A DNA stretch of 53,148 nucleotides from the NCBI GenBank assembly GCA_014338185.1, contig QUBV01000014.1, positions 1 through 53,148 of the forward strand, written 5' to 3'. Both the position numbers and the translations under genes were made by a program. The notes under the pieces were generated by a model. It saw nothing but the letters and a program-made list of their open reading frames with translations. It searched no databases and was not told where the DNA came from. The DNA comes from Lysobacterales bacterium. GTDB lineage: Bacteria > Pseudomonadota > Gammaproteobacteria > Xanthomonadales > Rhodanobacteraceae. Below are positions 1 through 13,022 of this stretch, piece after piece (within the stretch, counting starts at the first letter, position 1; each line of letters opens with the position of its first letter).

Positions 1-1014
1 GCTCAGCAGGGTGTCTCCGAGGTCGAGGGCGCCGTCACTGTTGTTGTCGGCGTAAAGCCGCAGGGCGCCCAGGCTGGCCGTCAGGGTGGCGCCGTTGGTT
101 TCACGCAGCACCATCTGGCTGACTGTTCCCGCCGTGAGGAAACCGTCAAGGCGATACTGCCCAAACACCTGTCCTGTGGCGCCGTAAGTGGCGGGCGTGC
201 CCGGCACGTTGCCCTCGCCCACATTCAGGAACAATTGCGGCGTGGTGATCGGCGTGTACTCCACACGCCAGGACACCAGGTGGCCCACGTCCAGGCCCCA
301 GCCGTCCACCATGATCAATGTCCAGGTTCCGGCGGGGCTGGTGCCGTAGAGCCGGTTGAAGGCGTCCAGGCCTTCCGGGTTGTAACCCGCTGCCGCCGCA
401 AAGGGCGGGGTCGCAGTCGTGATGTTGCCGTTACCGCCCCGCTCGGCACGCATTTTCTGCCAATAGTAGTTACGCAGCTCAGCCGCATAGCGCGCCTCCC
501 CGACGAATGGCCGCAAAAGCTTGGGGGCACCCGCAACAACATCGCTCAATACCCACGGATAGACCACAAGAAGATCGGCCGGCGCACAGGCAGCTGGCGT
601 GATCGTGTAACGAAAGGTCGGTTCGCCCTCCTTGGAGAGGGCGAACCACCCTTTCAGCTCGATTCCCATCAGAATCGGCTCCTCGTCGGGCGCCTCGGTC
701 ACCAAGCGCACGTCAGGAAAGGCTTGCGCTTGGCGCTCGAACCGATACAGCGCGTACTTGCCCTCCGGGTCCCAAACCTCACGAAGCCCATTCAACCCGT
801 TGACCACGGCATCCTCGATCGACGCGCCAAGCGCCGAATTCAGGGTGAAGATGTCGGTGGCTCGAAAGTCCGAAATGCGCAGCGACGTAGAGAACTCCTC
901 CGGCAAGGCATACAGCGTCTTGACGACGTTCTCGTAGAGCTTGCGATGGGGCCAGTTCGCTGGCGGACCACCGGACTTCGTGGGGGCTGTGGGAATCGTC
1001 GGGTTAGGCGGCAT
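1..1014 (-). CDS. Type II restriction endonuclease N-terminus fused in frame to a P-domain/secreted module (partial)
   Basis: The frame is open without a stop from an ATG at 1014 down to position 1, so the 3' end is missing. The first ~195 residues look like a restriction endonuclease. There is a PD-(D/E)xK-like core with FPDV and then GIELKGW about 20 residues later, followed by a region containing YPWVLSDV and NYYWQ. The start overlaps the last 11 bases of the methyltransferase gene, which is typical of a coupled restriction-modification pair. From about residue 200 (near position 400-430) the character changes completely. GTSPAGTWTL and GHLVSW are typical of a proprotein-convertase P-domain, and near the edge ADNNSDGALDLGDTLLS resembles a calcium-binding or dockerin-like repeat of large secreted proteins. 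The second half does not belong to any nuclease family I know. A chimeric contig end or a real fusion are both possible. The nuclease call for the N-terminal half is fairly secure. Confidence 0.7.
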   Translation of the reverse strand, partial: MPPNPTIPTAPTKSGGPPANWPHRKLYENVVKTLYALPEEFSTSLRISDFRATDIFTLNSALGASIEDAVVNGLNGLREVWDPEGKYALYRFERQAQAFPDVRLVTEAPDEEPILMGIELKGWFALSKEGEPTFRYTITPAACAPADLLVVYPWVLSDVVAGAPKLLRPFVGEARYAAELRNYYWQKMRAERGGNGNITTATPPFAAAAGYNPEGLDAFNRLYGTSPAGTWTLIMVDGWGLDVGHLVSWRVEYTPITTPQLFLNVGEGNVPGTPATYGATGQVFGQYRLDGFLTAGTVSQMVLRETNGATLTASLGALRLYADNNSDGALDLGDTLLS

Positions 1015-2104
1015 GCTCGCGATCCATCTCCACGTGCGTGAACGCATCCGCTAGTCTAGCGGCCGCGACCTTGAAGTAGTCGGGATTAATCTCGGCGGCG
1101 TAAGCGCGGCGGTTGGTTTGCATCGCTGCAATTGACGCCGAGCATAAGCCGCCGAATGGCTCCCAGACCACGTCGCCGGCGTCGGTGCTCGCGAGGACTT
1201 GCCGGCGCATTAGCGCAAGCGGCTTCTGGTTCGCATGCAGGTAGCCGACGCTCGCTCGAATGCGCTCGTGGCCGTGAACAGCCGGCTCCTGCCAGACGTT
1301 GGTCAGCCCGTGGGTATGGTTCCATTTCGCGCGCATCTTCATCCAAGCCGCTTCTGTGATGGGAGTATGCCCGTCGAGCGAGAAATAGGGACGATCTGTC
1401 GTCGCGCCGTGCTTGGCGCAATAGGCCGCCATGCGCGTGATCGCCTCTGCGGGTGGGAAGTACCATAGGTGGCACTGCGTCAGGTACTTGCGCGTTGCCG
1501 CGTTGGCCACGCCGCAGGCCTCGTTCGCTTGATTCATCGGCAGGCCGCTGCGCAGCCATTCTGCGCGAACCCAGTCCTTGATCGTCAGAGGCTGCCCGCT
1601 GGGGCCAGGCAACAAGTTGCGCTTGGTGTAACGGACAGCCACTTCGGACACGACGGGCATGCCGCGAATGGTCTTACTGTTGCAGTTACCCGCGATATGG
1701 GCAACGCCCTTATCCCAAATGCAACATTCTTCGTACTGCCAGCCGTGCAGTTCGAGGATCGGATGAACCAGCGCCCAGCCGAGCTCCGTACACCAAAACC
1801 AAAGGGTCGTGTCAGGCTGTGCGCATGCCGACCATGCGGCGACGTGGGGCGCGTACCATTCCGCAAGCTGAGTCGGTGTCTTGGGCTCACCGGGAAATTT
1901 GCCAAGACCATAGGGTCCGTCGGCAATGATGCATGTCGGCGCGGCCCACCGGGAATAGCAGCGCAATGCGTCATCGCGCTCAATGAATACGTTTGCGGCA
2001 CGCGCCACTTTAACTTGGCCGGCGGTCGTCCGCGGCTCGGCGCGGCCTGATGTGACAACGCGCAGACGGGACGCAGCGGACGCCTTGCGCGAGTTAGCGG
2101 CCAT
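1004..2104 (-). CDS. Type II DNA methyltransferase (amino-methyltransferase, beta-class order)
   Basis: A 366-residue S-adenosylmethionine-dependent DNA methyltransferase that would modify adenine N6 or cytosine N4 in the recognition site of the nuclease encoded next. The catalytic motif IV appears as DGPYG at residues 62-66 (DPPY is usual). The AdoMet-binding motif I is near the C-terminus as EPFGG, followed by AAEINPDYF. Motif IV before motif I is the beta-class order. The start ATG at 2104 is preceded by a clear CAGGAGG ribosome site. The gene stops inside the start of the endonuclease frame, so the two are probably translationally coupled, with methylase first. The G in DGPY is a variant worth noting but is compatible with activity. 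Target sequence and N4/N6 specificity cannot be told from sequence. Confidence 0.85.
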   Translation of the reverse strand: MAANSRKASAASRLRVVTSGRAEPRTTAGQVKVARAANVFIERDDALRCYSRWAAPTCIIADGPYGLGKFPGEPKTPTQLAEWYAPHVAAWSACAQPDTTLWFWCTELGWALVHPILELHGWQYEECCIWDKGVAHIAGNCNSKTIRGMPVVSEVAVRYTKRNLLPGPSGQPLTIKDWVRAEWLRSGLPMNQANEACGVANAATRKYLTQCHLWYFPPAEAITRMAAYCAKHGATTDRPYFSLDGHTPITEAAWMKMRAKWNHTHGLTNVWQEPAVHGHERIRASVGYLHANQKPLALMRRQVLASTDAGDVVWEPFGGLCSASIAAMQTNRRAYAAEINPDYFKVAAARLADAFTHVEMDREHAA

Positions 2105-2277: not shown

Positions 2278-2550
2278 TCATCTAGCGGAGAAGATGTCTC
2301 CTTCGAGGGCACGGTACAAGGCCATGTTGATTACGGCAGCGCGCGCCTGCCCTGTACGCTTCGCCACCTCATCGACCTTCCGCAACAGCTCCGGTGCAAT
2401 GGTGAGCGAGATCTGTCGTTTGTTCCCTTTGGGAATGCCCTTGTCGTAGGGGCGCTGCGAGTCCACATCGCCTGCGCAAGCATCAGGCGCGCCGGCAATG
2501 AACTTTTCGGCCTTCGAGTCAACCGCCCGAGGTTTACGCTGAATGGACAT
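2278..2550 (-). CDS. Ribbon-helix-helix DNA-binding protein, probable ParA partner
   Basis: A 90-residue basic protein. Its C-terminal half, beginning KRQISLTIAPELLRKVDEVA, has the pattern of a ribbon-helix-helix (CopG/Arc type) domain: a short beta strand followed by two helices. The gene starts 9 bases after the parA stop and on the same strand. In small plasmids a short RHH protein encoded directly after ParA commonly acts as the centromere-binding adaptor in place of ParB, often also repressing the operon. That role is inferred from position. No classical ParB gene is visible. Its target could be the TTGGATAT-type palindromes seen upstream of several element genes. The ribosome site is weak (TAGAGGTG before the ATG at 2550). 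Confidence 0.7.
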   Translation of the reverse strand: MSIQRKPRAVDSKAEKFIAGAPDACAGDVDSQRPYDKGIPKGNKRQISLTIAPELLRKVDEVAKRTGQARAAVINMALYRALEGDIFSAR

Positions 2551-2559
2551 TCGACACCT

Positions 2560-3222
2560 CTAGGAGGCGATTGTTTGGATATTAAAAGCATAGTCGGCGA
2601 GCGTGGTCAACTCGGAGCAAGCTTTGAGGTCGCGAGGGGCGAGCTCCTGCACGCATAGGCCTTGGCCTCCCGCGTTGGCGAAGGCTTTGCGTCGTCGGAT
2701 GGGAGTAGGCAAGTAGGTGAACTGCGGTACGCCGGCGACCGCTGCGGCCGCTTCGGTGTTGTCGACCGACAGTTCGCCGGGATCGGCGAGATTCAGCACG
2801 GCGAACGCTTGCAGGCCGTCTCGCAAGCTGCGCGCCTCGTCCACGAGCGCTGCGATATCCTCCAGAGCCCACACGTCGTAGCTGCGTGGGGCGAAGGGCA
2901 CGATCAGGACATCAGACAGGATCAGCGCCGCGCGAAGGGCAGAGCTATCGCGGCCGCCAGCGTCGATGATGGTGTCGTCCCACTTCCCGCGCTGCTGCTG
3001 AACCTGCGCGCGGAGCGCACTGCCATCGGGATACTGAGCGCAGGCGATGCCTGGCTCTCTTCCGCGCTCGGCTCGCGCGGCGATTGCCGCGCTCGCCGTA
3101 CCTTGGCGATCGCCGTCGATCAACCAGACTTCGCGGCCCGTTAGCGCGCGAGCGATCGCGAGGTTCACGGCCAACGTGGTCTTGCCGACGCCGCCCTTCG
3201 TGTTTCCGATTGTAAGAATCAT
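2560..3222 (-). CDS. parA: ParA-family partition ATPase
   Basis: A 220-residue MinD/ParA-superfamily ATPase. It has the deviant Walker A motif KGGVGKTT at residues 9-16 with the signature lysine, a LIDGDRQGTAS Walker A' region, and a later Walker B-like stretch DDTIIDAGGRDS. The size and lack of an N-terminal DNA-binding extension fit the short, type Ib-like ParA class that works with a small RHH partner, here encoded just downstream. Its role is active segregation of the replicating form, or stabilisation of the excised element. The start ATG at 3222 is 4 bases after the MFS gene stop. Its ribosome site AAAGGA directly follows a copy of the recurring palindrome, so expression may be controlled there. 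Proline replaces leucine or valine in places (NLADPGELS) but no key residue is missing. Confidence 0.88.
   Translation of the reverse strand: MILTIGNTKGGVGKTTLAVNLAIARALTGREVWLIDGDRQGTASAAIAARAERGREPGIACAQYPDGSALRAQVQQQRGKWDDTIIDAGGRDSSALRAALILSDVLIVPFAPRSYDVWALEDIAALVDEARSLRDGLQAFAVLNLADPGELSVDNTEAAAAVAGVPQFTYLPTPIRRRKAFANAGGQGLCVQELAPRDLKACSELTTLADYAFNIQTIAS
2575..2586 (+). promoter_or_regulatory. Palindromic motif copy 1 (TTGGATATTAAA)
   Basis: A copy of the recurring element palindrome, consensus TTGGATATTCAA. It lies inside the last codons of parA and 24 bases upstream of the RHH gene start. Function is inferred from recurrence only. Confidence 0.45.
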
Positions 3223-3226
3223 GAAT

Positions 3227-4459
3227 TCACGTCCTTTGAATATCCAAGACGGGAGCCGAAGCCCGGATGGAGAACAAGAACCAGCACGCCCCGCCGAGTA
3301 GGAAGAGGCACATCATCGCGAGTGCAAGGTCGACGACGCTGGCGGAGGCCTTGGGCACGACAACGCCGGCGACGAAGGCGAGCAGCAGCCACTGCATGCT
3401 TCCGCGGAGGGCGGCGGCGGTTCCGGCTATCGAGGGGAACAGATCCGAGAGCAGCGATTTCAGTGCAGGACCGGCCAGCCCCTGTCCGATCGCATAGAAA
3501 AACAGTGGCACGATGCTCCAAGGAAGCGACGGCCCCTTTGCATAGGACAACAGCACGTTGACCCCGACGGAGATCGACATGAGTCGAAAACCCCACCATG
3601 TCGTTTCGGATCGCGTCAGTAGCGGTGCCAGCCAGCCGGAAAGGAGCGCGCCAAGCACGTATCCGCTCACCAGCGGCAGGAACAGCCATGCGAACTCTGT
3701 ATTGCCAAGGCCGAGGTGGCGAGTCAGGAACGCAGACGACGCCAGGATGTAGAGGAATCCGGCCGTGAAGCTGAAGGCCACTGTCCCGGTCAGCAGATAG
3801 GTGTCGCGATGCCCTAGCACACGTCGGAAGTTGGCGACGATCGCCTTGGGTTTAGCGGACTGCCGCAAATGATCTGGAAGCGTCTCGGGAAGGCGCCACA
3901 GCACCATCGTCAGCATAGTCAACCCCAAAGCGGCCAGCAGCCCAAATACAGAACGCCAGCCGAAGGCAGTGAGCAGGAGACCGCCAAGCACCGGGGCTAG
4001 GACGGGGGCGATGTTGTAGGTCACCGTTCCGTACGCCATGACCTTCTGCACGGCCGCGCCCTCGAAGCAATCACGCGTGATCGTGTAGAACGCGATCACA
4101 CCGGCGCCGGCGCTCAGTCCCTGTATGGCTCGGAAGAACAGCAATGCGTTGATGCTCTCCGCAAACATGCAGCCGAGCGACGCCACCGTATACACGCTCA
4201 GCGCGATCAGCATGGGTCGCCTGCGTCCAAGCGCGTCCGAAATCGTCCCGTGAAACAGATTCATCAACGCGAATGCGGCGAAGTAGGCCGTCAATGTCTG
4301 CTGCACGTAGGCCGGCGACACGCCGAAGTCGGCAGCCAAGGTTGGGAAGGCCGGTAGATAAGCGTCGATCGAAAACGGGCCGAGCATTGACAGGAATGCG
4401 AGGAAGGCCGCGAACGCGAACGTGGCTTCCGACTTCTTGTCGATGGCAATCATGGTCAT
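3227..4459 (-). CDS. MFS drug-exporter, Bcr/CflA type
   Basis: An inner-membrane major facilitator of 410 residues with about 12 hydrophobic segments. It carries the drug/H+ antiporter motif A, here GTISDALGRRRP between segments 2 and 3, and an early DAYLPAFP, both typical of the Bcr/CflA group (bicyclomycin, chloramphenicol and related exporters). I chose the ATG at 4459 because GAGGAATTGCC is well placed before it. An upstream in-frame ATG at 4495 would add 12 residues without a good ribosome site. It lies between the small basic gene and parA on the same strand, as cargo inserted in the partition operon. The substrate cannot be deduced. A resistance phenotype is possible but unproven. Confidence 0.85.
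   Translation of the reverse strand: MTMIAIDKKSEATFAFAAFLAFLSMLGPFSIDAYLPAFPTLAADFGVSPAYVQQTLTAYFAAFALMNLFHGTISDALGRRRPMLIALSVYTVASLGCMFAESINALLFFRAIQGLSAGAGVIAFYTITRDCFEGAAVQKVMAYGTVTYNIAPVLAPVLGGLLLTAFGWRSVFGLLAALGLTMLTMVLWRLPETLPDHLRQSAKPKAIVANFRRVLGHRDTYLLTGTVAFSFTAGFLYILASSAFLTRHLGLGNTEFAWLFLPLVSGYVLGALLSGWLAPLLTRSETTWWGFRLMSISVGVNVLLSYAKGPSLPWSIVPLFFYAIGQGLAGPALKSLLSDLFPSIAGTAAALRGSMQWLLLAFVAGVVVPKASASVVDLALAMMCLFLLGGACWFLFSIRASAPVLDIQRT
3236..3247 (-). promoter_or_regulatory. Palindromic motif copy 2 (TTGGATATTCAA)
   Basis: This is the best copy of the repeated palindrome when read on the minus strand. It encodes LDIQ at the end of the MFS exporter. It is directly followed by the AAAGGA ribosome site and sits 13 bases before the parA start codon. 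Confidence 0.5.
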
Positions 4460-4479
4460 GGCAATTCCTCGCATCTCCA

Positions 4480-4491
4480 ATGGATATCCAA
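4480..4491 (-). promoter_or_regulatory. Palindromic motif copy 3 (TTGGATATCCAT)
   Basis: A fully palindromic core, GGATATCC, 20 bases upstream of the MFS exporter start. It is one mismatch from a perfect TTGGATATCCAA. A second CAATATCC-like half-site follows at 4493-4500. Confidence 0.45.
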
Positions 4492-4500
4492 GCAATATCC

Positions 4501-4719
4501 TTAGCGCTCGATTCCCGAGCCGCGCTCCAATGCGCTGCGGAATCGTTCGTTGGCCTGCCGCTTGCTGAGCTGCTTTGCTCGGGCTTGGCGCGCCGCTCGA
4601 ACGGCGCCGGCGACAATGCGCTTGGCTTCGGCTGGTGGTAACGAGCGCGTTGCCTGGGTGAAGGCCTTACGCGCCTGCGCCGGTGTCATGTTCCGGGTTG
4701 ACTCGGTCTTGCTGGTCAT
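4501..4719 (-). CDS. Small basic protein of unknown function downstream of traA
   Basis: 72 residues, rich in Arg, Lys, Ala and Gln, with the predicted appearance of two or three amphipathic helices (TPAQARKAFTQATRSLPPAE). No signal peptide or membrane segment. The start ATG at 4719 has a good GAGGAG ribosome site. It lies 41 bases after the relaxase gene on the same strand, so it is probably co-transcribed with traA. I do not recognise a family. The composition would suit a nucleic-acid-binding accessory of DNA transfer, but that is speculation. Confidence 0.6.
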   Translation of the reverse strand: MTSKTESTRNMTPAQARKAFTQATRSLPPAEAKRIVAGAVRAARQARAKQLSKRQANERFRSALERGSGIER

Positions 4720-4760
4720 CGTGATCGCTCCTCATGGAATGGCCGGAACGTCCGGCCCCG

Positions 4761-7700
4761 TTACCGCGTTGGGCCGCGATGCTGGCCTCGATCCCTCTGC
4801 GCGAATTGCTGCTGTGCTTGCTCGCGGATGGCCTTGGCACGCTCGGCCTGTTGCGCCGTGCGGAACGTCTCGACGCGCTGCCACAGTTCCGGCTGCTCGC
4901 GCTGCACCTTTCGCGCCGCCAACCGCTGAGCGTCCATCGGACCGCGTGCGATGTTTCCGGCGATCCGCCGGCGACGCTGGAGGTCGCCAATTCGTCGCAC
5001 CAGATGCTGCTCTTGGCGTTGCCACACGGCTGCGTCCTTTTCGTACTGGCCGCGCCCGAGCATGGCCGCCAGTCCACGCGGCTCCTGCGGTCGCGCGGCC
5101 TGGTGCGTGCGGTAGGCGTGCGTCAAGGCCTCGTCCAGCTTCTCCAGGTGCGCAGTCACGGCTACCGCCCGGCTGCGCCGTTCGGCGGATCGCTGCTCCA
5201 ACAGCTTCAGCAATGCCGCTTCATCGCGGCGACCGCAATCAACCGCTGTGGTGGCGGACATCGCCTTGGCTACCTTCGCGGCCGCGACATGAGCGGCTTT
5301 CGCCTTGGCGTTCTCCGCTGCAATCTCCGATGCCTTCCGCTTCGAGGCTGCTGCTGGGGGCACAGAAACCCGCGCGCCGGTCTTGCCGGCCGCCGTCATC
5401 GTCAGCATCGGGCCATCCCGACCGTCACTTTCCAGAAGACGCCCTATGGTTTGCTCGGCACGCTTCGCCAGCTCCTCCAACTTGATCTGACCGTGCTCGA
5501 TCCGGCGATGGACTACCCGTTCACCATCGAATCCGCGTCGGTTGGCAAAGTCCAGCGTACTTTCCTTTCGCCGCTCGCGACTGAGCGTGCGCGCCAGCCG
5601 CTCCCGTGCGTCGGCTTCATCCTTGCCGCCGAAGTCCTCGACGCCGGCGAACATGGTTGCGTTCTCGCGGTGGCGAGTCATGCCGACATAGGCAAGGCTG
5701 CGATCCATACCAGGCGTCGCCAATAGGTAGGCTTGATCGACCGTCACGCCCTGCGCTTTGTGGATGGTGACGGCGTAGCCATGGTCGACGGCCGCATATT
5801 TCGCGACGTCCACCATTCGGATTTCCCCCGTGTCCAACTTCACCGATAAGCCGGCATGGTCGGCACGTTCGACGGTGCCAAGGGTGCCGTTCTTCACGCC
5901 TAGATCGCGATCGTTCCGCAGGAAAACGATGCGGTCGCCAACGGCGAGTTCGCGCCCGCCACGTTCCGTCTGAAAGCGCACAGCACCGCCCAGCTCACCG
6001 CGCCCTTGCCGGACGTCGCGTACTGCTTCATTCAGCGCCCGAACGTCTTTGTTGCTATGGGCCAAGATGATCTGGCTACCGTTGCCGGCGTCGCCCACGT
6101 AGGCGGATGCGAGCGCCTTACGCGCATCCTCCCGGCTGTTGTGCATCCGGACGTGGCCACGTGAGTCATAGGCACGCAATCCGGCCGTGACCGATCCCCG
6201 CGCGAACTCCTGCCCGGCGTCGCGTGCCCATGCGTGGCGCTGACGACGAACTTCGGTGATTTCCGATGCGCCGACGTGTTGAACGACGGCCCGAAACGAG
6301 GCGCCCGCCTCGATGGCGGCGAGCTGCTTATGGTCGCCCAACAAGACAACTTTCGCGCCGGCCTTCTCGGCCGCATCGAGCACGCGCCCGAGCTGCCGGC
6401 TGCCGATCATCCCGGCCTCGTCGATCACCAGAACATCGTGTTTCGTGAGTTTGTCGCGGCCTTCCTTCCATGCGTATTCAAGGGATGCCAGCGTTCGGCT
6501 TTGGATGCCGCTGCCGGCTTGTAGTTCGTCCGCCGCTTTGCCGGCCAAGGCCGCACCACGCACTGTGAAGCCTTGGGCTTCCCATGCTTCGCGTGCAACC
6601 TTCATGGAGAACGATTTGCCAGTGCCAGCGTCGCCGATCACCACGGCCAGGCTGCCGGCCTTCGTGACGTGGCGAACGGCGGCTTTCTGCTCGTCACTCA
6701 AAGTGCCCGCACCGCCGATCGCCGCCTCGGCGGTCGCCGTCGAAACACCATGCGTAGTGGTGCGCGAAAGGCGCTCAGCCGCGTCCGCCATGCGGCGCTC
6801 GGCTTCCACCATGTCACGGGTCGAATAGCGCGCTGGCGCTCGGCCGGTTGCCGGCTCCATTTCGATCAACGCCGATGAAGTTTCGAGCTTGGTTAGAAGC
6901 TGCTGAAACTGCGTCGCATCGTCGATGTAGCGGTTCAGTTCGGCGGCAATATCTCGACGATCAAAGACCGCCTTGGTCGCCGTCACCTTCTCAAGAATAA
7001 GCTCAGGATGCTCGACGATCTGCCGCGCCTGCTCTTGGCGGTTGGCGTTGTGAATGTCGATCCGCTCGGCAGGGATTCCCTTGCGCTCCATCGACACCGC
7101 ATCCGGTCCGATGTGTCGCGTCGGCGTGAGGCTTACGCCCTGGTCGGCGTAGCTGCGAAAGTCGATCCATTCGGAGTGCCCGCCTCGCTCCAAAGCGGCA
7201 TTGGCGAGAGCAGCCCATTCCCGCCTCAAGTCCCGTATGTCGTCCGCTGTCGTGCCTGCAATCCCGGCCCTCTGACGATCCTTGTTCGCCAGCTCAATCG
7301 TTGCCTTCGCGCCGAGCTTGCCATCGGCTCCGATGGTTCGCGTGGTCGCAAGCATGTGCGCGTGAAAATTGCGCTCGTCGCCTTCCTTGTCCGGTGCGTG
7401 GATACAAACATCCACCGCGACGCCGTAGCGGTCGGCGATGGATTTCGCCATCTCGACAGCGACCGCCTTCCGCTCAGCGTCCGTCAGCTCATGGGGCAGT
7501 GCGATCCGCCATTCGCGTGCGACGCGAGAATCCTTACGCTTCTCGGCGGCTTCCGCTGCGTTCCATAGCGCCTCACGGTCAGGCGTCGGCACGCCCTCGG
7601 GCGTCACGATGTCGGCTGACAGCACGCCGCCCTTCCGGGTGAAGTCGTGAACCTCTCCAGTGCGCTCATCCACCAACTTCGATCCGGAACGGTAGGCAGC

Positions 7701-7766
7701 AGCCGCGACGGCGCTCTGTCCGGATGCGCGCCCCATCGTGTAGGTCGTGAAGTGGTAGATCGCCAC
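4761..7766 (-). CDS. traA: TraA: MOBQ relaxase fused to RecD/TraI-type helicase
   Basis: A 1,001-residue conjugative relaxase-helicase of the Ti-plasmid TraA type. It nicks oriT, stays on the 5' end and unwinds the transferred strand. The N-terminal MobA/MobL domain spans roughly residues 1-220. It has a candidate catalytic Tyr in AAYRSG (Y25) and the metal-binding histidines H123 and the HAH pair at 135-137 (NFHAHML). The helicase part has Walker A GDAGTGKS near residue 377 and Walker B VLVIDEAGM near 443, with further motifs GDHKQLAAI and YAVTIHKAQG, typical of SF1B enzymes. The start is GTG at 7766. The C-terminal ~250 residues are charged and helical. The gene is divergent from traC, and oriT lies in the 231-base gap, as in Ti plasmids. 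Confidence 0.93.
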   Translation of the reverse strand: MAIYHFTTYTMGRASGQSAVAAAAYRSGSKLVDERTGEVHDFTRKGGVLSADIVTPEGVPTPDREALWNAAEAAEKRKDSRVAREWRIALPHELTDAERKAVAVEMAKSIADRYGVAVDVCIHAPDKEGDERNFHAHMLATTRTIGADGKLGAKATIELANKDRQRAGIAGTTADDIRDLRREWAALANAALERGGHSEWIDFRSYADQGVSLTPTRHIGPDAVSMERKGIPAERIDIHNANRQEQARQIVEHPELILEKVTATKAVFDRRDIAAELNRYIDDATQFQQLLTKLETSSALIEMEPATGRAPARYSTRDMVEAERRMADAAERLSRTTTHGVSTATAEAAIGGAGTLSDEQKAAVRHVTKAGSLAVVIGDAGTGKSFSMKVAREAWEAQGFTVRGAALAGKAADELQAGSGIQSRTLASLEYAWKEGRDKLTKHDVLVIDEAGMIGSRQLGRVLDAAEKAGAKVVLLGDHKQLAAIEAGASFRAVVQHVGASEITEVRRQRHAWARDAGQEFARGSVTAGLRAYDSRGHVRMHNSREDARKALASAYVGDAGNGSQIILAHSNKDVRALNEAVRDVRQGRGELGGAVRFQTERGGRELAVGDRIVFLRNDRDLGVKNGTLGTVERADHAGLSVKLDTGEIRMVDVAKYAAVDHGYAVTIHKAQGVTVDQAYLLATPGMDRSLAYVGMTRHRENATMFAGVEDFGGKDEADARERLARTLSRERRKESTLDFANRRGFDGERVVHRRIEHGQIKLEELAKRAEQTIGRLLESDGRDGPMLTMTAAGKTGARVSVPPAAASKRKASEIAAENAKAKAAHVAAAKVAKAMSATTAVDCGRRDEAALLKLLEQRSAERRSRAVAVTAHLEKLDEALTHAYRTHQAARPQEPRGLAAMLGRGQYEKDAAVWQRQEQHLVRRIGDLQRRRRIAGNIARGPMDAQRLAARKVQREQPELWQRVETFRTAQQAERAKAIREQAQQQFAQRDRGQHRGPTR

Positions 7767-7822
7767 CGCTTTCCTCTTTGGCGTTGCCCTTGCTGGGGTG
7801 CCGGGGCATCCCCTGCCGCACG

Positions 7823-7859
7823 GGGTTGGTCGCAGACCAACCCGTAAGTGCGCCCTTGC
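7823..7859 (+). other. oriT: Origin of transfer (oriT), RSF1010/MOBQ-like nic region
   Basis: An inverted repeat, GGGTTGGTC at 7823-7831 and GACCAACCC at 7835-7843, is directly followed by GTAAGTGCGCCCTTGC at 7844-7859. From memory, the RSF1010/R1162 oriT has the same layout: a short inverted repeat followed by GTAAGTGCGCCCT, with the nick inside that core. Placement between divergent traA and traC matches Ti-type systems. The exact nick position cannot be fixed from sequence. Confidence 0.88.
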
Positions 7860-7997
7860 TGCTCGCTCGGGACTTTCTTCGCCGCGACTTCGACGGTCAA
7901 TGGAGCTCGCGCAACGTTTCAGTATTCCCGGACAGTTTTCGGCAAATGCTGCCGAGCGTCGGTCGAGAATCCCAACGCACCCAAGCGAGGAACACAG

Positions 7998-8258
7998 ATG
8001 GCACGCAAGACCTTGGCGGAACGCAGATCGGAAAAGCTCGACGAGCTCGAACGCATCAAGAGCGATCTCGCGCGGATCGAGGAAAGAGCCGCCATGCAGA
8101 TCGGCAAGCTCGCCGTTCGTGCCGGGCTCGCCGATCTCGACATCGAGGACGAACAGCTTGCAAAGGAGTTCGCGGCTGTCGCCGCGAAGTTTCAGTCGAG
8201 GAGCGGGAAGAAGGACAAACCCGCGTCACCGAATGCTGCTTCGGCTTCTCAGAACTGA
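7998..8258 (+). CDS. traC: TraC-like conjugal transfer accessory protein
   Basis: 86 residues beginning MARKTLAERRSEKLDEL. An N-terminal charged coiled-coil-like helix is followed by ERAAMQIGKLAVRAGLADLDIEDEQL, the conserved part of the TraC/MobC-like accessory proteins found between oriT and traG on Ti-type plasmids. These are thought to help relaxosome assembly at oriT. I chose the ATG at 7998 because a GAGGAAC ribosome site precedes it. The longer frame from 7848 would run across the oriT core. It is the first gene of traC-traD-traG. Confidence 0.82.
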   Translation: MARKTLAERRSEKLDELERIKSDLARIEERAAMQIGKLAVRAGLADLDIEDEQLAKEFAAVAAKFQSRSGKKDKPASPNAASASQN

Positions 8259-8280
8259 GCGCGAACTGTCGAGGATTCGC

Positions 8281-8484
8281 ATGAATGCCAGAAAGCAAGA
8301 CACCCGCCACAAGATCGAACTCGGCGGACTCGTTATCAAGGCTGGTTTGGGCGATGAACCCAAGGTTGTCGTTCTCGGTGCATTGGCGCTGGCCGCTGCT
8401 GCCCTACAGGGTCAGAACGCCAATGCGAACCGCGCTCGCTTTGCCGCCGAAGGCGAAGCCTCTTTCCAAGGTGATTCGCCATGA
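8281..8484 (+). CDS. traD: TraD-like conjugal transfer protein
   Basis: 67 residues containing the signature KQDTRHKIELGGLVIKAGL followed by DEPKVVVLGALALAAAAL. This matches the small TraD protein of Ti-type transfer regions, always encoded between traC and traG. Its stop overlaps the start of traG by four bases (ATGA), so translation of the two is coupled. The molecular role is not well known. It is regarded as a relaxosome/coupling accessory. The ATG at 8281 gives the expected family length, while upstream sequence in the same frame has no family resemblance. Confidence 0.85.
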   Translation: MNARKQDTRHKIELGGLVIKAGLGDEPKVVVLGALALAAAALQGQNANANRARFAAEGEASFQGDSP

Positions 8485-10931
8485 CACGGATCACGCTGAT
8501 TGTTGCTCTATGGCTGGCTCCGGCATTCGCCTTCGCACTGTCGGTTCCTATCCTCCCCGATGACTACTCGCCCCAAAGGTGTCGCGAGCTCAAAGCGAAG
8601 CTCGTCACGCAGTCCAACCCACTCAACCCGAAGCGTGTTGACCCAGCGCTGTTGAACGCAAACGGGCGCGGCCTGTATGAGGACTTTTCCTGCGACGCGC
8701 TCGATGTCGGATGGCGCTGGTCGCTGCTGCGAAAGGCGACGCTAGACGCTGCAAATGAATTGCAGAAATCAGGCATCAATCCGGCTGATCCGTCGGCAAC
8801 TGCGAACATTCGTTCGGCGCTCCTGTCTCTTGCCGATTCCGCCGCACGCGTCGATGCCGATTTCGTCGATGTGCACGGCGTGCCGGACGGAAGAATCCAG
8901 TTCCTGGATTGGAGCAAGAAGCTGTTCGCGGAGCATGGCTGGCCGGTGCCCGCTTCCATGCGCGCCGTGTTCACCGAGCTCGCGGACAGGATCGGAAGCG
9001 AATATGTCGACCCGGCCGAGCTGCGCGCCGTGGTTTCGGTCGGAACGGATCGAGCAAGCGGGCTTGTCATGCTGTCCAGCGACGCCGCAGGCAATGCCTT
9101 CCAGGTGGCGCAAGTCGGCTCCATCGAGCGTGACAAAGCGGCCCGCGACAACGCCGAGCATGAGGCGGAGATTGCTTCGCAGTCCTACACGGCGCAAGTG
9201 CGAAAACGCGCGCAACGCTTTCCGGGCTTCTTGAATGTTCTTCTCGGCGCTGCCGGCCTCGCCGGCCTGTCGGTGTTTTTCGCTCGCGGCTATCTGATGA
9301 CGGGTCGGCGACGCCTCATCGCCTTCGTAGCGGGAACGATCGGACTGTTCATCGCGACGATGCTCGTCGGCGCGCTGCAAATCGTGAGCGGCGTTCCTAC
9401 CTGGCTTGCCTTTGTCTTCCTGCTCGCGGCGTTCGCGCTCATCTATGTGCCGTTCCGTGACCGGCTCAATGCTCGTTTCATTGGGGCGTCCACTCTCGCA
9501 ACGCACGGGTCGGCCGCATGGGCAACGTTGCGCGATGCGATCAGCGCGAGCCGGTTGTTCAATCGTGGAATGGTATCTGCTGATTCCTACGGCTTCGCGT
9601 TGGGCCGCTTCCCAGGCGCGCCGGACAATCTCGATCCGCGTCTTCGCTACATGGGGCATGTTCTCACCTGTGCCCCGACCGGCAGCGGCAAAGGCATCGG
9701 TGCGGTGATTCCTACGCTGCTGGAGTATCCAGGCAGCGTCCTTTGCCTCGACATCAAGGGAGAGAACTACGCCGTCACCGCCCGTGCCCGTCGTGCCTTG
9801 GGGCAATCGGTCTATCTGGTCGATCCATTCGGCGTCACGGGCGGCCAAGCTTCGGCGTTCAATCCGCTCGACGTGCTCGACTTGGCGAACCCAGATGTGG
9901 TGGGCCAAGCCTCGACGCTGGTCGAAATGTTAGTCGTGACCGGCGCTAATCAGGACGACAATTCTGCGCACTTCAACGACTCGGCCAAGGATCTGATCAA
10001 GGGGCTGATCGTCTACGCGAAGAGCTTGCCCGATCCGGCAAGTCGATCACTCGGCGAAGTCCGCAGGCTGATTACGCTACCGCTTGCCGTTCCTGCCAAC
10101 TCCGGGCGTGAATCACTAGCCGACCACCTCGCGAACATGTCGGCATCGGATGCTTTGGCGTTCGGCATTCCTGCCCGTGCGGCAAATGCCTTCATGAGCA
10201 AGGACGCCAAGGAAGCCAGCGGCGTCCTGTCTACCGCGCAACGGCATACCGCCTTTCTCGACGATCCCCGTATCGTGACCGCGCTGTCGCGCTCGGATTT
10301 CAGCTTCGCCGATCTCAAGCGTCGGCCCATGACCGTCTACGTCGTCATGCCGCCGGATCGCCTGGCTGCGCAAACGCGCTTCATGCGCGCACTGGTTGGC
10401 GCAGCGCTGTCGGCGATTACGGCCACCAGCGATACGCCGCAGTTCAACACGCTGTTCCTGCTCGACGAGTTCGCCCAACTCGGCCGACTTCAGGCCATCG
10501 AGGACGCGATTTCTCTGGTGCGCGGTTACGGCGCCCGCTTTTGGCTGTTCGTGCAAGACCTCTCGCAGCTCAAGGGCGTGTATCCGAAGTGGCAAACCTT
10601 CCTGGCGAACAGCGCCAAGCAGTTCTATGGCACAGCGGACTTCGAAACGGCGAAGTACGTTTCGGACATGCTGGGCCAGACCACCATTGAGTTCCGGACA
10701 GCGGGCGACTCGTCCTCCACGTCACTGCAAGGCGGCGGCAGCTCCGGCACCAGTACGAATCAGCAGCTCGCAGCCCGTTCGCTTCTGACAACGGATGAGG
10801 TCATGCGGCAAGGGCCAACACGCCCCATCGTGCTGATTCAGGGCGAACGGCCCTACAGCCTGGATCGCCTGAACTACCTCAACGACCCCGAATACGCCGG
10901 CGCGGCCGACTCCAATCCTTTTCATCGGTGA
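8481..10931 (+). CDS. traG: TraG/VirD4-type coupling protein with unusual secreted N-terminal domain
   Basis: An 816-residue type IV coupling protein, the inner-membrane ATPase that hands the relaxosome to a secretion channel. Walker A APTGSGKG is near residue 399 and Walker B TLFLLDEFAQLG near residue 656. Three hydrophobic segments lie at about residues 250-325 (FLNVLLGAAGLAG, FVAGTIGLFIATM, WLAFVFLLAAFAL). The ATPase body from FIGASTLATHGSA onward is standard. The N-terminal ~250 residues are not standard: a signal-peptide-like start (LIVALWLAPAFAFAL) is followed by a hydrophilic domain that should lie in the periplasm. Ti-type TraG is usually around 640 residues. No mating-pair genes follow, so the element must borrow a channel from another plasmid or from genes outside the window. 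Confidence 0.93.
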   Translation: MTRITLIVALWLAPAFAFALSVPILPDDYSPQRCRELKAKLVTQSNPLNPKRVDPALLNANGRGLYEDFSCDALDVGWRWSLLRKATLDAANELQKSGINPADPSATANIRSALLSLADSAARVDADFVDVHGVPDGRIQFLDWSKKLFAEHGWPVPASMRAVFTELADRIGSEYVDPAELRAVVSVGTDRASGLVMLSSDAAGNAFQVAQVGSIERDKAARDNAEHEAEIASQSYTAQVRKRAQRFPGFLNVLLGAAGLAGLSVFFARGYLMTGRRRLIAFVAGTIGLFIATMLVGALQIVSGVPTWLAFVFLLAAFALIYVPFRDRLNARFIGASTLATHGSAAWATLRDAISASRLFNRGMVSADSYGFALGRFPGAPDNLDPRLRYMGHVLTCAPTGSGKGIGAVIPTLLEYPGSVLCLDIKGENYAVTARARRALGQSVYLVDPFGVTGGQASAFNPLDVLDLANPDVVGQASTLVEMLVVTGANQDDNSAHFNDSAKDLIKGLIVYAKSLPDPASRSLGEVRRLITLPLAVPANSGRESLADHLANMSASDALAFGIPARAANAFMSKDAKEASGVLSTAQRHTAFLDDPRIVTALSRSDFSFADLKRRPMTVYVVMPPDRLAAQTRFMRALVGAALSAITATSDTPQFNTLFLLDEFAQLGRLQAIEDAISLVRGYGARFWLFVQDLSQLKGVYPKWQTFLANSAKQFYGTADFETAKYVSDMLGQTTIEFRTAGDSSSTSLQGGGSSGTSTNQQLAARSLLTTDEVMRQGPTRPIVLIQGERPYSLDRLNYLNDPEYAGAADSNPFHR

Positions 10932-10934
10932 CGC

Positions 10935-11069
10935 ATGGCCATCTGGATTTCAGCGGGCGTGATCGTTTTCGTCGCGATGTTCGCTCTGGCGGCCGTAGTT
11001 CGCCTCGCGATCCGCTGTGCGGAATGGTTCTGGCGGCGTCGATCTCTCCGGCGTCAAAACGTGAGGTGA
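10935..11069 (+). CDS. Small single-span membrane protein
   Basis: A 44-residue frame starting 3 bases after traG and ending 3 bases before the next gene. One hydrophobic segment (VIVFVAMFALAAVVRLA, residues 10-26) is followed by an Arg-rich cytoplasmic tail (WFWRRRSLRRQ). Tight spacing on both sides supports a real gene in the traCDG transcript. No family is recognised. Positive-inside charge predicts N-out topology. Confidence 0.5.
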   Translation: MAIWISAGVIVFVAMFALAAVVRLAIRCAEWFWRRRSLRRQNVR

Positions 11070-11072
11070 GAC

Positions 11073-11714
11073 ATGAATGAGTTCGTTGTTTTGAACCTGG
11101 TTCTTCGCAAAGTCGTTCCTGTCGTCGCGACAGGGCTGGATCGGACGTTCCGCCTTGTTGGCCGCGTGCAGCGGAGCTCAAAGCCGGAGAAGAATGACCT
11201 CACCGGCGCAGGTGGCGTACCTGCGATGAGAACTATCGCCATTCCGAGAGCGCAAGCAAGGCAGGCGTCAGCCACGCAGAACGCGGAACCGGATGATGGC
11301 CTACGAGCAGACGCGACTAGTCCTCGCTCCGCTCCATCCTCGTCGGGCGTAGCGAACGAGACCGCAGCGATTGTCGTGGCCGAGTGCTACGCGACCCCTG
11401 AGCATCAAGGCGACGACGGCGATCTACGCCAAGAAGATGATCTCGATTGGGCGGGCAGCCTGGCGCATGCCGCCGCCGCGAGCCTCCACATTGGAAACAT
11501 CCTCGCGATGGTCCGTGCGGGCTGGCTTATTCCGGATGCGGAGCAGCTTGCGGACATCACGGCAGCCTTGGATGCGATGGAAGCCTTCCACACACGTACC
11601 GACAGCGTGATCGCGCCCGTTCTGGCTGCGATGGACGAAGACCAGCAGGCCGATTTCTTCGGCGACTTCGACGCCGACCTCCCGGCCGACCTCCCCGAGC
11701 TCGACGGCGCATGA
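11073..11714 (+). CDS. Hypothetical protein of the transfer operon
   Basis: 213 residues with no recognised domain. The middle (about residues 55-95) is low-complexity, rich in Ala, Ser, Pro and Arg. The C-terminal third is acidic and helical (DWAGSLAHAAAASLHIGNILAMVRAGWLIPD, then AMDEDQQADFFGDFDADLPADLP). The start has a TGAGGTGAG ribosome site. Its stop overlaps the next start (ATGA), so it belongs to a translationally coupled run behind traG. The acidic tail might mimic or bind a basic partner, but nothing firm can be said. Confidence 0.65.
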   Translation: MNEFVVLNLVLRKVVPVVATGLDRTFRLVGRVQRSSKPEKNDLTGAGGVPAMRTIAIPRAQARQASATQNAEPDDGLRADATSPRSAPSSSGVANETAAIVVAECYATPEHQGDDGDLRQEDDLDWAGSLAHAAAASLHIGNILAMVRAGWLIPDAEQLADITAALDAMEAFHTRTDSVIAPVLAAMDEDQQADFFGDFDADLPADLPELDGA

Positions 11715-11977
11715 AACAGCTGAAGCTTCGACTTGCCACGCCGGACTTCAAAGTCCTTGTGGAACTGTCCCGCTCCATCGCGGCATCCGTTGGCCCGTTT
11801 CAGGGCGCGGAGCCGGAGCAACTGGCCGCATTCATCCTGGCTCGCGCACTCCAACTATTCGACTCCGAACCGGGGATGCTCGAGCTGTTCTTTTCGACGC
11901 ATCCGATTTTGAGGCCCGCAAGGCAGGCCGACGCCATCGCCGACAGGCTCGGCGAACACGCTGGCCCGAAGGGCTAG
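11711..11977 (+). CDS. Hypothetical protein, coupled to preceding gene
   Basis: 88 residues from the ATG at 11711, which overlaps the upstream stop by four bases. The sequence is soluble and helical (FKVLVELSRSIAASVG, EQLAAFILARALQLFDSEPGMLELF). No signal peptide, membrane span or familiar motif. It is the last gene of the traC-to-11977 run, followed by a hairpin that could end transcription. Function unknown. Confidence 0.65.
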   Translation: MKQLKLRLATPDFKVLVELSRSIAASVGPFQGAEPEQLAAFILARALQLFDSEPGMLELFFSTHPILRPARQADAIADRLGEHAGPKG

Positions 11978-11989
11978 CGCACCCTCGAA

Positions 11990-12009
11990 AACCGCATTCA
12001 ATGGCGGTT
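11990..12009 (+). terminator. Candidate terminator after the tra run
   Basis: A six-base-pair stem, AACCGC/GCGGTT, with an 8-base loop, preceded by A residues and followed by CTTTA. Weak but well placed 12 bases after a stop codon and before the next transcription unit. Confidence 0.4.
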
Positions 12010-12022
12010 CTTTACCCATCGT

Positions 12023-12034
12023 TTGGATATTAAA
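12023..12034 (+). promoter_or_regulatory. Palindromic motif copy 4 (TTGGATATTAAA)
   Basis: Identical over 12 bases to the copy at 2575-2586. It is immediately followed by an AAGGAGG ribosome site and ends 11 bases before the start codon of the small membrane protein gene at 12046. Confidence 0.5.
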
Positions 12035-12045
12035 AGGAGGCGCAC

Positions 12046-12204
12046 ATGACATCCCAAAGCCCTTGGTTCGACTTTCTCTGGTACGTCGTTCCGCAAATCA
12101 TGGCCTGGCTCCTCACGATCGTCCCGATCCTGAGCGTGTTCCATATCGGCATGCAACGCCTGATCCTAGGCCGGCGGCCGAAGCTCGCCAAACCGCAGCC
12201 GTAG
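12046..12204 (+). CDS. Small membrane protein, 52 residues
   Basis: Begins MTSQSPWFDFLWYVVPQIM and has one long or two short hydrophobic segments (about residues 8-42), ending in a basic tail (LGRRPKLAKPQP). It has the best ribosome site in the element, AAGGAGG, 7 bases before the ATG. The recurring palindrome lies directly upstream. It heads a small run of unknown genes that ends with an XRE regulator. Small membrane proteins beside transfer genes can act in entry exclusion, but no homology supports that here. Confidence 0.6.
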   Translation: MTSQSPWFDFLWYVVPQIMAWLLTIVPILSVFHIGMQRLILGRRPKLAKPQP

Positions 12205-12281
12205 CGGCATCGGGGAATTTCTATGGTCGACGCCGTTGCAGGAGGCGGAGTCGACCCACACTTCTCAATGAGGAAGCGCTC

Positions 12282-12536
12282 GTGCAGGAGCAAGAATTTC
12301 GGCACCTTCTCGGCAAGGTCCGCGACGCGGCCACCGGCGGGAAAGATGCCTGGTCCGTGCAATCCACGGGCGAGAAGCTGGCTGTCGCCGTGACACTCAA
12401 TCGCTTCGACTGGCTGCAAGCGATGGACTACACGATTGCCGAGGCAATCGAACGCATCGGGCCGGAGTGGACTACCATGATCCCGGCGGTTGCGAGGCTC
12501 GTTCTCGACGAAGCCCAGGAGGATGATTTCATATGA
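12282..12536 (+). CDS. Hypothetical protein with GTG start
   Basis: 84 residues. I chose the GTG at 12282 because GAGGAA lies 7-8 bases before it. The longer frame from 12063 overlaps the previous gene and reads as Arg-rich junk. The protein is acidic (RDAATGGKDAWSVQSTGEKLAVAVTLNRFDWLQAMDYTIAEAIERIGPEW). Its last codons overlap the next start (ATGA). No family is recognised. The LAVAVTLNRFDWL stretch suggests a small alpha/beta fold. Confidence 0.6.
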   Translation: MQEQEFRHLLGKVRDAATGGKDAWSVQSTGEKLAVAVTLNRFDWLQAMDYTIAEAIERIGPEWTTMIPAVARLVLDEAQEDDFI

Positions 12537-12742
12537 ACGTCACCAGCGGTAACGATGCTCGATGCTTCACGATGGATCGCGTACTAGCTGCGCTCGCCGG
12601 CAAGCTCGATGCGGCGCTGCTGTCGGACGACGAATCCGTGTACTTCGATGACTTGATCGGCGAGGCGATGGGTTCTGCCATGACGCCGGCCGGGCGTGCC
12701 TTTTGGGCCACGTTCGAAGGCGCTCCGAACACCGACCTGTGA
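12533..12742 (+). CDS. Hypothetical acidic protein, coupled to preceding gene
   Basis: 69 residues, acidic, no signal peptide. It starts within the stop of the previous gene (four-base overlap) and ends 58 bases before the XRE regulator. The sequence AALLSDDESVYFDDLIGEAMGSAMTPAGRAFW recalls small plasmid proteins of unknown role but I cannot place it. An inverted repeat, ATCGCC/GGCGAT at 12751-12774, lies just after it. Confidence 0.6.
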   Translation: MNVTSGNDARCFTMDRVLAALAGKLDAALLSDDESVYFDDLIGEAMGSAMTPAGRAFWATFEGAPNTDL

Positions 12743-12785
12743 GTCAACAATCGCCGGCCGCAAAGCTGGCGATCCGCCAAGTTGA

Positions 12786-12797
12786 AAGGATATTCAA
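12786..12797 (+). promoter_or_regulatory. Palindromic motif copy 5 (AAGGATATTCAA)
   Basis: A degenerate copy of the recurring palindrome, two mismatches at its left end. It ends 3 bases before the start of the XRE-family regulator gene. A regulator that autorepresses through this site would block its own ribosome-binding region. Confidence 0.42.
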
Positions 12798-12800
12798 AGA

Positions 12801-13022
12801 ATGTCTCTCCAATCTTCGCCGGCGCTCGGGCTGTTCGCTCAGAACTTCAAGCGTGCCCGCAAACGTGCCGGACTGTCCCAAGAGGATGTCCACAAGCTAT
12901 GCGGGGTTGCTGCGTCCTACGTCAGCGCCGTCGAGCGCGCCAAACGAAGCGTCACGATTGGATGTGCCGAACGATTGGCAGGTGCCGTCAACGTGCCACT
13001 GAGCGTGCTGCTGACCCCGTAG
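12801..13022 (+). CDS. XRE-family helix-turn-helix regulator
   Basis: 73 residues. The body, FAQNFKRARKRAGLSQEDVHK followed by GVAASYVSAVERAKR, is a standard Cro/C1-type helix-turn-helix with the recognition helix around ASYVSAVER. No extra domain. It lies next to the proposed replication origin and carries a copy of the recurring palindrome over its start, so it is the leading candidate for the factor that reads that palindrome across the element. R-M controller (C) proteins have similar size and fold, but the R-M genes are 11 kb away. What it regulates is inferred. Confidence 0.85.
   Translation: MSLQSSPALGLFAQNFKRARKRAGLSQEDVHKLCGVAASYVSAVERAKRSVTIGCAERLAGAVNVPLSVLLTP

What the first reader, a model, noticed from the sequence alone, without database searches (positions are those of the whole stretch)
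2575..12797. Five copies of a TTGGATATTCAA-like palindrome, each just before a start codon
Copies lie at 2575-2586, 3236-3247, 4480-4491, 12023-12034 and 12786-12797, ending 3 to 24 bases before the starts of the RHH gene, parA, the MFS gene, a small membrane protein and the XRE regulator. Two copies are embedded in coding ends of the preceding gene, so they are conserved despite coding constraints. They may be operators of one regulon or a distributed centromere. A similar string at 15628-15639 inside the orphan gene may be chance.
Basis: partly seen in the sequence, partly recalled or inferred. Interest (0 to 1): 0.72.

Follow-up and report, generated by a model that had tools for sequence, protein, structure and literature searches.

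The report
Plasmid-partition operators shared with cargo genes
The repeated 12-letter palindrome looks like the docking site of a small DNA-binding protein from a plasmid-segregation gene pair found in many bacteria, and in this integrated element copies of it also stand in front of an efflux-type transporter gene and a small membrane-protein gene, so the segregation protein may control them too.

Summary
Four copies (2575, 3236, 4480, 12023) are beyond chance; the fifth (12786) is weak, and 15628 is chance-like. TTKRATATYMAA occurs 3 times in the whole 3.17-Mb genome, all in this integrated plasmid-like element.

The palindrome belongs to the parA-RHH gene pair. In 36 of 36 related cassettes it sits at the parA/RHH junction, whether coding, overlapping the stop codon or after it. 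In 25 of 36 a close match also lies just before parA. RATATY cores in the par segments favour 11-bp multiples (53 of 82 pairs; shuffles 0.54). The RHH protein, predicted CopG-like, is the probable binder. The XRE protein is not: none of the 35 other cassettes has an XRE homologue in the DNA held, and 13 XRE homologue loci lack close matches.

Best reading: operators and probable centromere sites of a type Ib-like (ParA plus RHH) partition system, working like pSM19035 omega or pMF1 ParB. Here the site also reaches cargo: an efflux-type MFS gene lies between what looks like the ancestral par operator and parA, and a small membrane-protein gene carries a further copy. Binding, repression and partition are inferred, not shown. 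New member of a known kind.

The parts
2278..2550 (-). RHH (CopG-like) gene, 90 aa, proposed ParB-type binder of the palindromes
   Evidence: no Pfam hit at E 0.01
2560..3222 (-). parA, 220 aa, small Walker-type partition ATPase without N-terminal extension
2575..2586 (.). Site at the parA/RHH junction, inside the coding end of parA (TTTAATATCCAA on the coding strand, encodes F-N-I-Q); conserved in 36 of 36 cassettes
3236..3247 (.). Site 25 bases before the parA start (first base to ATG), inside the coding end of the MFS gene
3227..4459 (-). MFS gene (Bcr/CflA efflux type), lies between the 4480 site and parA; absent at this place in L018 and L019
4480..4502 (.). Tandem site: palindrome 4480-4491 plus second core AATATC at 4494, 11 bp apart, reaching the stop codon of the 72-aa gene; probably the ancestral par operator, now before MFS
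4501..4719 (-). 72-aa gene that lies next to parA in L019 (and near it in L018)
12023..12034 (.). Extra full site, 11 bases before the start of the small membrane-protein gene
12046..12204 (+). Small membrane-protein gene (52 aa, hydrophobic by eye)
12786..12797 (.). Weak candidate site before the XRE gene, overlapping its likely ribosome-binding sequence; not above chance on score
12801..13022 (+). XRE regulator gene, 73 aa; not the likely binder

Best explanation
The palindromes are binding sites of the small RHH protein (2278-2550), the ParB-type partner of ParA, in a type Ib-like partition system carried by a plasmid-like integrated element. The protein would bind RATATY cores flanked by TTK/MAA, cooperatively with an 11-bp period, just upstream of the ribosome site of parA and at the parA/RHH junction. 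That would repress the par operon, and clustered bound sites would be the loading points for ParA (parS). In this element an efflux-type MFS gene has come to lie between the ancestral operator (4480-4502) and parA, so it starts under that operator while parA has a site of its own in the MFS 3' end. A further full site stands before the small membrane-protein gene (12023), and perhaps a weak one before XRE. The RHH protein would therefore act as an element-wide regulator, as omega does on pSM19035. Shown here: the sites, their conservation, position and phasing, and the company of RHH. Inferred: binding, repression, ParA loading and control of cargo.
For: Junction site in 36 of 36 cassettes (best match in the stretch: 0 mismatches 19, 1 mismatch 16, 2 mismatches 1) although its end lies anywhere from 21 bases before to 14 bases after the end of the parA stop codon, so it is read in different frames or overlaps TAA or TGA. 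Where it encodes F-N-I in frame the codons are TTT AAT in 20 of 20, against 22 of 80 Phe and 26 of 94 Asn codons in the same parA bodies. Sites of 14 bits or more: junction 35 in 2.4 kb, 70 bases before parA 27 in 2.5 kb, after RHH 16 in 4.4 kb, 71-600 bases upstream 21 in 19.0 kb, parA bodies 0 in 21.9 kb, elsewhere 32 in 558 kb; the after-RHH and distal zones were not used in training. RATATY pairs at 11/22/33/44 bp: 53 of 82 pairs in the par segments of 47 cassettes, shuffles 0.54 on average, largest 5 of 200. Of 11 more distant cassettes 8 keep a site of 14 bits or more 17 to 28 bases before parA, with ParA identity down to 52% and RHH down to 46%. Two Thauera cassettes (L070, L075) with ParA 74-75% identical but RHH strand KKLISLKI instead of KRQISLTI have no site of 14 bits or more; L070 has another repeat at the same two places. 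RHH profile matches CopG (E 1.9e-4). L019 shows TAAGGATATT at the end of the 72-aa gene directly before parA.
Against: No binding data. No sigma-70-like promoter match near the window's sites. Single palindromes are short for a parS: pSM19035 needs four or more contiguous heptads for full activity (PMC9499535, passages), so 12023 may be operator only. L076 keeps a KQQITLTI strand but has no site of 12 bits or more, so the strand does not explain everything. 11 of 36 cassettes have only matches with 2 to 4 mismatches in the 70 bases before parA. L018 and L019 have no homologue of the 12046 gene in the DNA held and no such site there, so control of that gene is not shown to be conserved. Cassettes are related, not independent, and were chosen to have an RHH gene. 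The RHH model is weak (pLDDT 70.3, pTM 0.41) and no PDB fold match reaches E 0.001 (best CopG, E 0.05).
Confidence: 0.82

Rival explanations
1. The XRE protein (12801-13022) binds the palindromes and represses the five genes, including its own; RHH is unrelated to the sites.
For: A small XRE regulator is encoded in the element and a weak copy lies 3 bases before its start.
Against: No XRE homologue (E 1e-4) in the DNA held for the 35 other cassettes that carry the sites; 13 XRE homologue loci have no match within one mismatch; the copy at XRE is the weakest of the five.
Confidence: 0.06
2. The sites are only local autoregulatory operators of the par operon; the MFS, 12023 and 12786 copies are leftovers or chance and regulate nothing.
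For: Most strong sites of relatives lie in the par region; L018 and L019 lack the 12023 type; no promoter match is seen near the window's sites.
Against: 12023 is one of only three exact motifs in 3.17 Mb and sits 11 bases before a start codon; a few relatives also have remote exact sites (L008 two, L017 one, L023 one).
Confidence: 0.3
3. The sites are mainly a distributed centromere (parS) with little role in transcription.
For: pMF1 ParB sites are spread along the plasmid (PMC3235114, abstract and passages); 11-bp phased clusters suit a nucleoprotein assembly.
Against: All window sites, and the par sites of relatives, lie just before start codons or at the parA/RHH junction, which suits operators; the window has only one phased pair. 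The two roles do not exclude each other.
Confidence: 0.12
4. The repeats are ribosome-binding or other translation-start signals, or coding coincidence.
For: They lie near start codons and 12786 contains AAGGA.
Against: Separate ribosome-type sequences follow most sites; the junction site is kept whether coding, overlapping a stop or after it, and parA bodies hold none; the chromosome has no exact copy.
Confidence: 0.02

Closest known systems
pSM19035 delta/omega (ParA / RHH-ParB) partition system
   Same: Small ParA plus RHH ParB; parS sites overlap the promoter regions of several genes (copS, delta, omega); RHH protein also controls partition and copy-number genes (PMC9499535, passages)
   Different: omega sites are arrays of 7-10 non-palindromic heptads WATCACW; here discrete 12-bp palindromes with 11-bp phased RATATY cores; PDB sequence searches up to E 1 do not list omega
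Myxococcus pMF1 parCAB (type Ib)
   Same: 75-aa ParB binds repeats near the par genes and along the plasmid, also in ORFs, and represses the operon (PMC3235114, abstract and passages)
   Different: Repeat motif AGATGTCT; has an extra ParC; no sequence comparison was made here
CopG plasmid copy-number repressor
   Same: Nearest solved RHH protein by profile (E 1.9e-4) and first in the fold list
   Different: 45-aa chain without the N-terminal segment; not known to me as a ParA partner (recalled)
pNECK1 and related MOBQ plasmids
   Same: TraA, TraG, parA and RHH genes as here, with a site at the same junction
   Different: Free plasmids; no match within one mismatch in the 70 bases before parA of pNECK1 itself. 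The authors noted no parB and a copG-like gene possibly for replication control (PMC6409357, passages)

Membership tests
Type Ib partition system (small ParA, small ParB, repeats) | ParA of 192-308 aa without N-terminal DNA-binding domain (definition from PMC3235114, passages) | tested here: met
   220 aa; ATPase domain matches start at residues 2-4
Type Ib partition system (small ParA, small ParB, repeats) | ParB of 46-131 aa encoded next to parA | tested here: met
   90-aa gene 9 bases after parA; RHH by profile match to CopG; no Pfam family
Type Ib partition system (small ParA, small ParB, repeats) | Repeat sites at or near the par genes | tested here: met
Type Ib partition system (small ParA, small ParB, repeats) | ParB binds the repeats and represses the operon | not testable with these tools
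   needs gel shift and reporter assays
Type Ib partition system (small ParA, small ParB, repeats) | Stabilises a low-copy plasmid | not testable with these tools
   needs a stability assay
pSM19035 omega family | Sequence relation of the RHH protein to omega | tested here: not met
   PDB sequence searches up to E 1 list CopG, an antitoxin and, in the single-sequence search, designed proteins, not omega; a more remote relation is not excluded
NCBIfam NF041546 ParA_partition | Score above the curated cut-off (180 bits) | tested here: not met
   142.4 bits, best family for this ParA
XRE-controlled regulon | Regulator gene present wherever the sites are | tested here: not met
   0 of 35 other cassettes at E 1e-4 in the DNA held

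The most novel reading that the evidence does not exclude
A partition protein acts as element-wide regulator of cargo in an integrated element: par operators stand before an efflux gene, a membrane-protein gene and perhaps an XRE regulator, so that cargo expression reads the dose of the partition protein. The same RHH family, with one operator code (RATATY cores, 11-bp phased), serves proteobacterial plasmids widely, and the code changes when the RHH strand changes.
Probability: 0.3. Interest if true: 0.6.

Novelty: new member of a known kind. Interest (0 to 1): 0.45.

Why it matters
It gives a family-wide site for a ParA-RHH gene pair carried by many proteobacterial plasmids, whose RHH gene is annotated in the records seen here as CopG family, ribbon-helix-helix or hypothetical protein. 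It also suggests how a cargo gene can come under partition control, by lying between operator and parA. The test is easy: one 12-bp site and one 90-aa protein. The site was not found described in the searches made here, which cover open-licence papers only.

Tried and rejected
XRE as binder: rejected as main reading. Chance: rejected for four copies, not for 12786, accepted for 15628. Translation signal: rejected. The literal motif strings gave 0 papers and 17 papers, none on plasmid partition by title (listing only). pZM3H1 (PMC3606827, passages) predicts 7-bp inverted repeats as parS for its PAR module; its quoted ParA start looks different by eye, so it was not used as a precedent and no sequence comparison was made. 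Searching 233 family and 398 order genomes with the RHH protein gave the own genome and one other (G147) in the first and the own genome only in the second, so variation inside the genus could not be studied. MFS homologues on plasmids are all below 60% identity; the plasmid of the best one has no motif within one mismatch, so the origin of the MFS gene is open. My own simple promoter score in relatives reached 9 or more (of 12, half a point off for a 16- or 18-base spacer) with the -10 box 38 to 44 bases before parA in 15 of 36 cassettes, the window scoring 5.5; no shuffle control was run.

Rows dropped before counts: of 26 loci, L039 (parA cut), L041 (fragment), L040, L042 and L043 (distant or partial) were left out of the 36. 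L040, ParA 53% and RHH 43% identical, has no site of 14 bits or more (one of 12.6). The 14 plasmids were picked for diversity from the 40 rows shown of at least 5,000 matching records. The 11 distant cassettes were picked from 40 and 25 rows shown of 144 and 124 matching records. All cassettes counted had to have an RHH match. In one search sites were chosen as the best match in a short stretch, and the matrix was trained on those with one mismatch or fewer (58 sites, 49 distinct), so densities in the junction and near-parA zones are partly circular; the other zones are not.
Full report
What was checked. All five strings are at the stated places and end 24, 13, 20, 11 and 3 bases before the starts of the RHH, parA, MFS, small membrane-protein and XRE genes. 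One search gives 8 strand-wise matches (2 mismatches or fewer) against 0.55 expected. In the whole own genome the degenerate palindrome TTKRATATYMAA occurs exactly three times, all in this element: 2575, 3236 and 12023.

Context. The first 17.6 kb of the window look like an integrated plasmid-like element: integrase next to a tRNA-Asn gene, a RepA_C gene and three 33-bp repeats, a Ti-type/MobQ TraA relaxase, a TraG-type coupling protein, parA and a 90-aa RHH gene. A 92% match to the tRNA end on contig C48 is the likely other attachment site; C48 ends about 1 kb further on.

The motif belongs to the parA-RHH pair. ParA searches gave relatives on many plasmids and 26 loci in genomes. In 36 cassettes (window, 14 plasmids, 21 genome loci) the best match at the parA/RHH junction has no mismatch to the consensus set in 19, one in 16 and two in 1. 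The end of the site lies from 21 bases before to 14 bases after the end of the parA stop codon. In 20 cassettes it encodes F-N-I in frame, always with TTT AAT, while the same genes otherwise use TTC and AAC about 72% of the time; in others it overlaps TAA or TGA or follows the stop. So the DNA, not only the protein, is what is kept. In the 70 bases before parA a match with one mismatch or fewer is found in 25 of 36; the other 11 have 2 to 4 mismatches.

Matrix scan. A matrix trained on the 35 other cassettes ranks 12023, 2575, 3236 and 4480 as the four best places of the window (23.7, 23.7, 22.6, 16.9 bits; mean best of 200 shuffles 9.5, largest 20.5). 12786 (12.2) and 15628 (8.5) do not stand out, and 15222 in the orphan gene scores 12.4. 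Over the 36 cassettes, sites of 14 bits or more number 35 at the junction, 27 in the 70 bases before parA, 21 in the 71 to 600 bases upstream, 16 after RHH, 0 in the parA bodies (21.9 kb), 1 assigned to an RHH body (L038, where the start codon chosen lies in the junction) and 32 in 558 kb elsewhere, two of these being the window's 4480 and 12023. Exact motifs outside the masked cassettes number 9 against 0.2 expected in 575 kb: the window's 12023, four at 277 to 337 bases before parA (L003, L007, L029, L037) and four remote ones (L008 two, L017, L023). With one mismatch allowed there are 21 against 3.85.

Phasing. In 47 cassettes (the 36 plus 11 more distant ones) the RATATY cores in the par segments are 11, 22, 33 or 44 bp apart in 53 of 82 pairs; shuffles give 0.54 on average and at most 5. 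27 of 47 cassettes have a pair at 11, 22 or 33. In 566 kb outside, 7 of 32 pairs fall there. In the element the only 11-bp pair is 4483/4494, at the MFS site. One protein unit per helical turn is the natural reading (inference).

Which protein. The RHH gene lies beside parA in the cassettes counted (a condition of counting), and its strand (KRQISLTI in the window) is strongly conserved: in an alignment of 18, K44, Q46, T50 and I51 are invariant, R45 and I47 nearly so. Its nearest solved relative is CopG (profile E 1.9e-4; fold match E 0.05 with a weak model). XRE has no homologue at E 1e-4 in the DNA held for the 35 other cassettes, and 13 XRE homologue loci (two plasmid, eleven genomic) have no match within one mismatch. 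Of 11 distant cassettes, eight keep a site of 14 bits or more 17 to 28 bases before parA (L067, L068, L069, L071, L072, L073, L074, L077). Three do not: L070 and L075, whose RHH strand reads KKLISLKI, and L076, which keeps KQQITLTI and is a counterexample to a simple code. In L070 a different repeat stands before parA and at the junction, with copies offset by 11; in L075 GATATC-type cores recur in both places.

How the window came to be so. In L019 the 72-aa gene is followed directly by TAAGGATATTAAAAGCATATC and then parA; in L018 a small ORF stands between. In the window the same gene end (TAAGGATATTGCTTGGATATCCA) is followed by the MFS gene, whose last codons form the next palindrome before parA. 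So the MFS gene lies between what looks like the ancestral operator and parA (inference). The small membrane-protein gene after the 12023 site has no homologue in L018 or L019, and no site stands there.

Mechanism. Most likely RHH binds these sites, represses parA-RHH and, at clustered sites, stimulates ParA. This is what related kinds do: in pSM19035 the RHH sites overlap promoter regions of copS, delta and omega (PMC9499535, passages), and pMF1 ParB has sites spread over the plasmid and represses its operon (PMC3235114, abstract and passages). On this view the MFS, small membrane-protein and perhaps XRE genes belong to a par regulon. pSM19035 parS needs four contiguous repeats for full activity, so the single 12023 copy is more likely an operator than a centromere. 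No sigma-70-like promoter match was found near the window's sites, which leaves the regulatory reading open.

Verdict. It is a new member of a known kind, a type Ib-like partition pair with an RHH regulator; the family-wide site and the cargo genes under it are the new parts. Papers were searched without finding this site described. Of PMC9499535, PMC3606827, PMC6409357, PMC12421886, PMC9501424 and PMC9178275 only passages (and for some the abstract lines shown in listings) were seen.

Noticed in passing
G000:C48:59105-59168 (L061, L066): Likely second attachment site of the element (92% match to the tRNA-Asn end); contig C48 ends 1.0 kb beyond, so the element probably continues there and may join the left end of this contig.
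   Followed up: partly
window 1-1050 (-): An open frame runs off the contig start; its two halves look unrelated by eye, so the contig end may be a chimaera or a real fusion. The first 470 bases occur only here in the genome.
   Followed up: partly
L070:1731-1771 and 2456-2496; L075 upstream of 1724 and 2366-2428: Two Thauera plasmids with closely related parA but RHH strand KKLISLKI carry other repeats, with GATATC-type cores, where the palindrome normally lies.
   Followed up: partly
L003:24692, L006:713, L007:19542: Inverted repeats ATGCACTG...TTTAACATTAAA or TTTAATGTTAAA...CAGTGCAT, a near-copy of the motif in the middle of a longer palindrome, between convergent genes.
   Followed up: no
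L003:20672-20941 (pNECK1): The gene its authors call copG-like, in a plasmid said to lack parB, is by this comparison the partner of ParA and a likely ParB.
   Followed up: partly
window 15222-15233: A 12.4-bit match inside the orphan gene, scoring slightly higher than the XRE site; probably chance.
   Followed up: no
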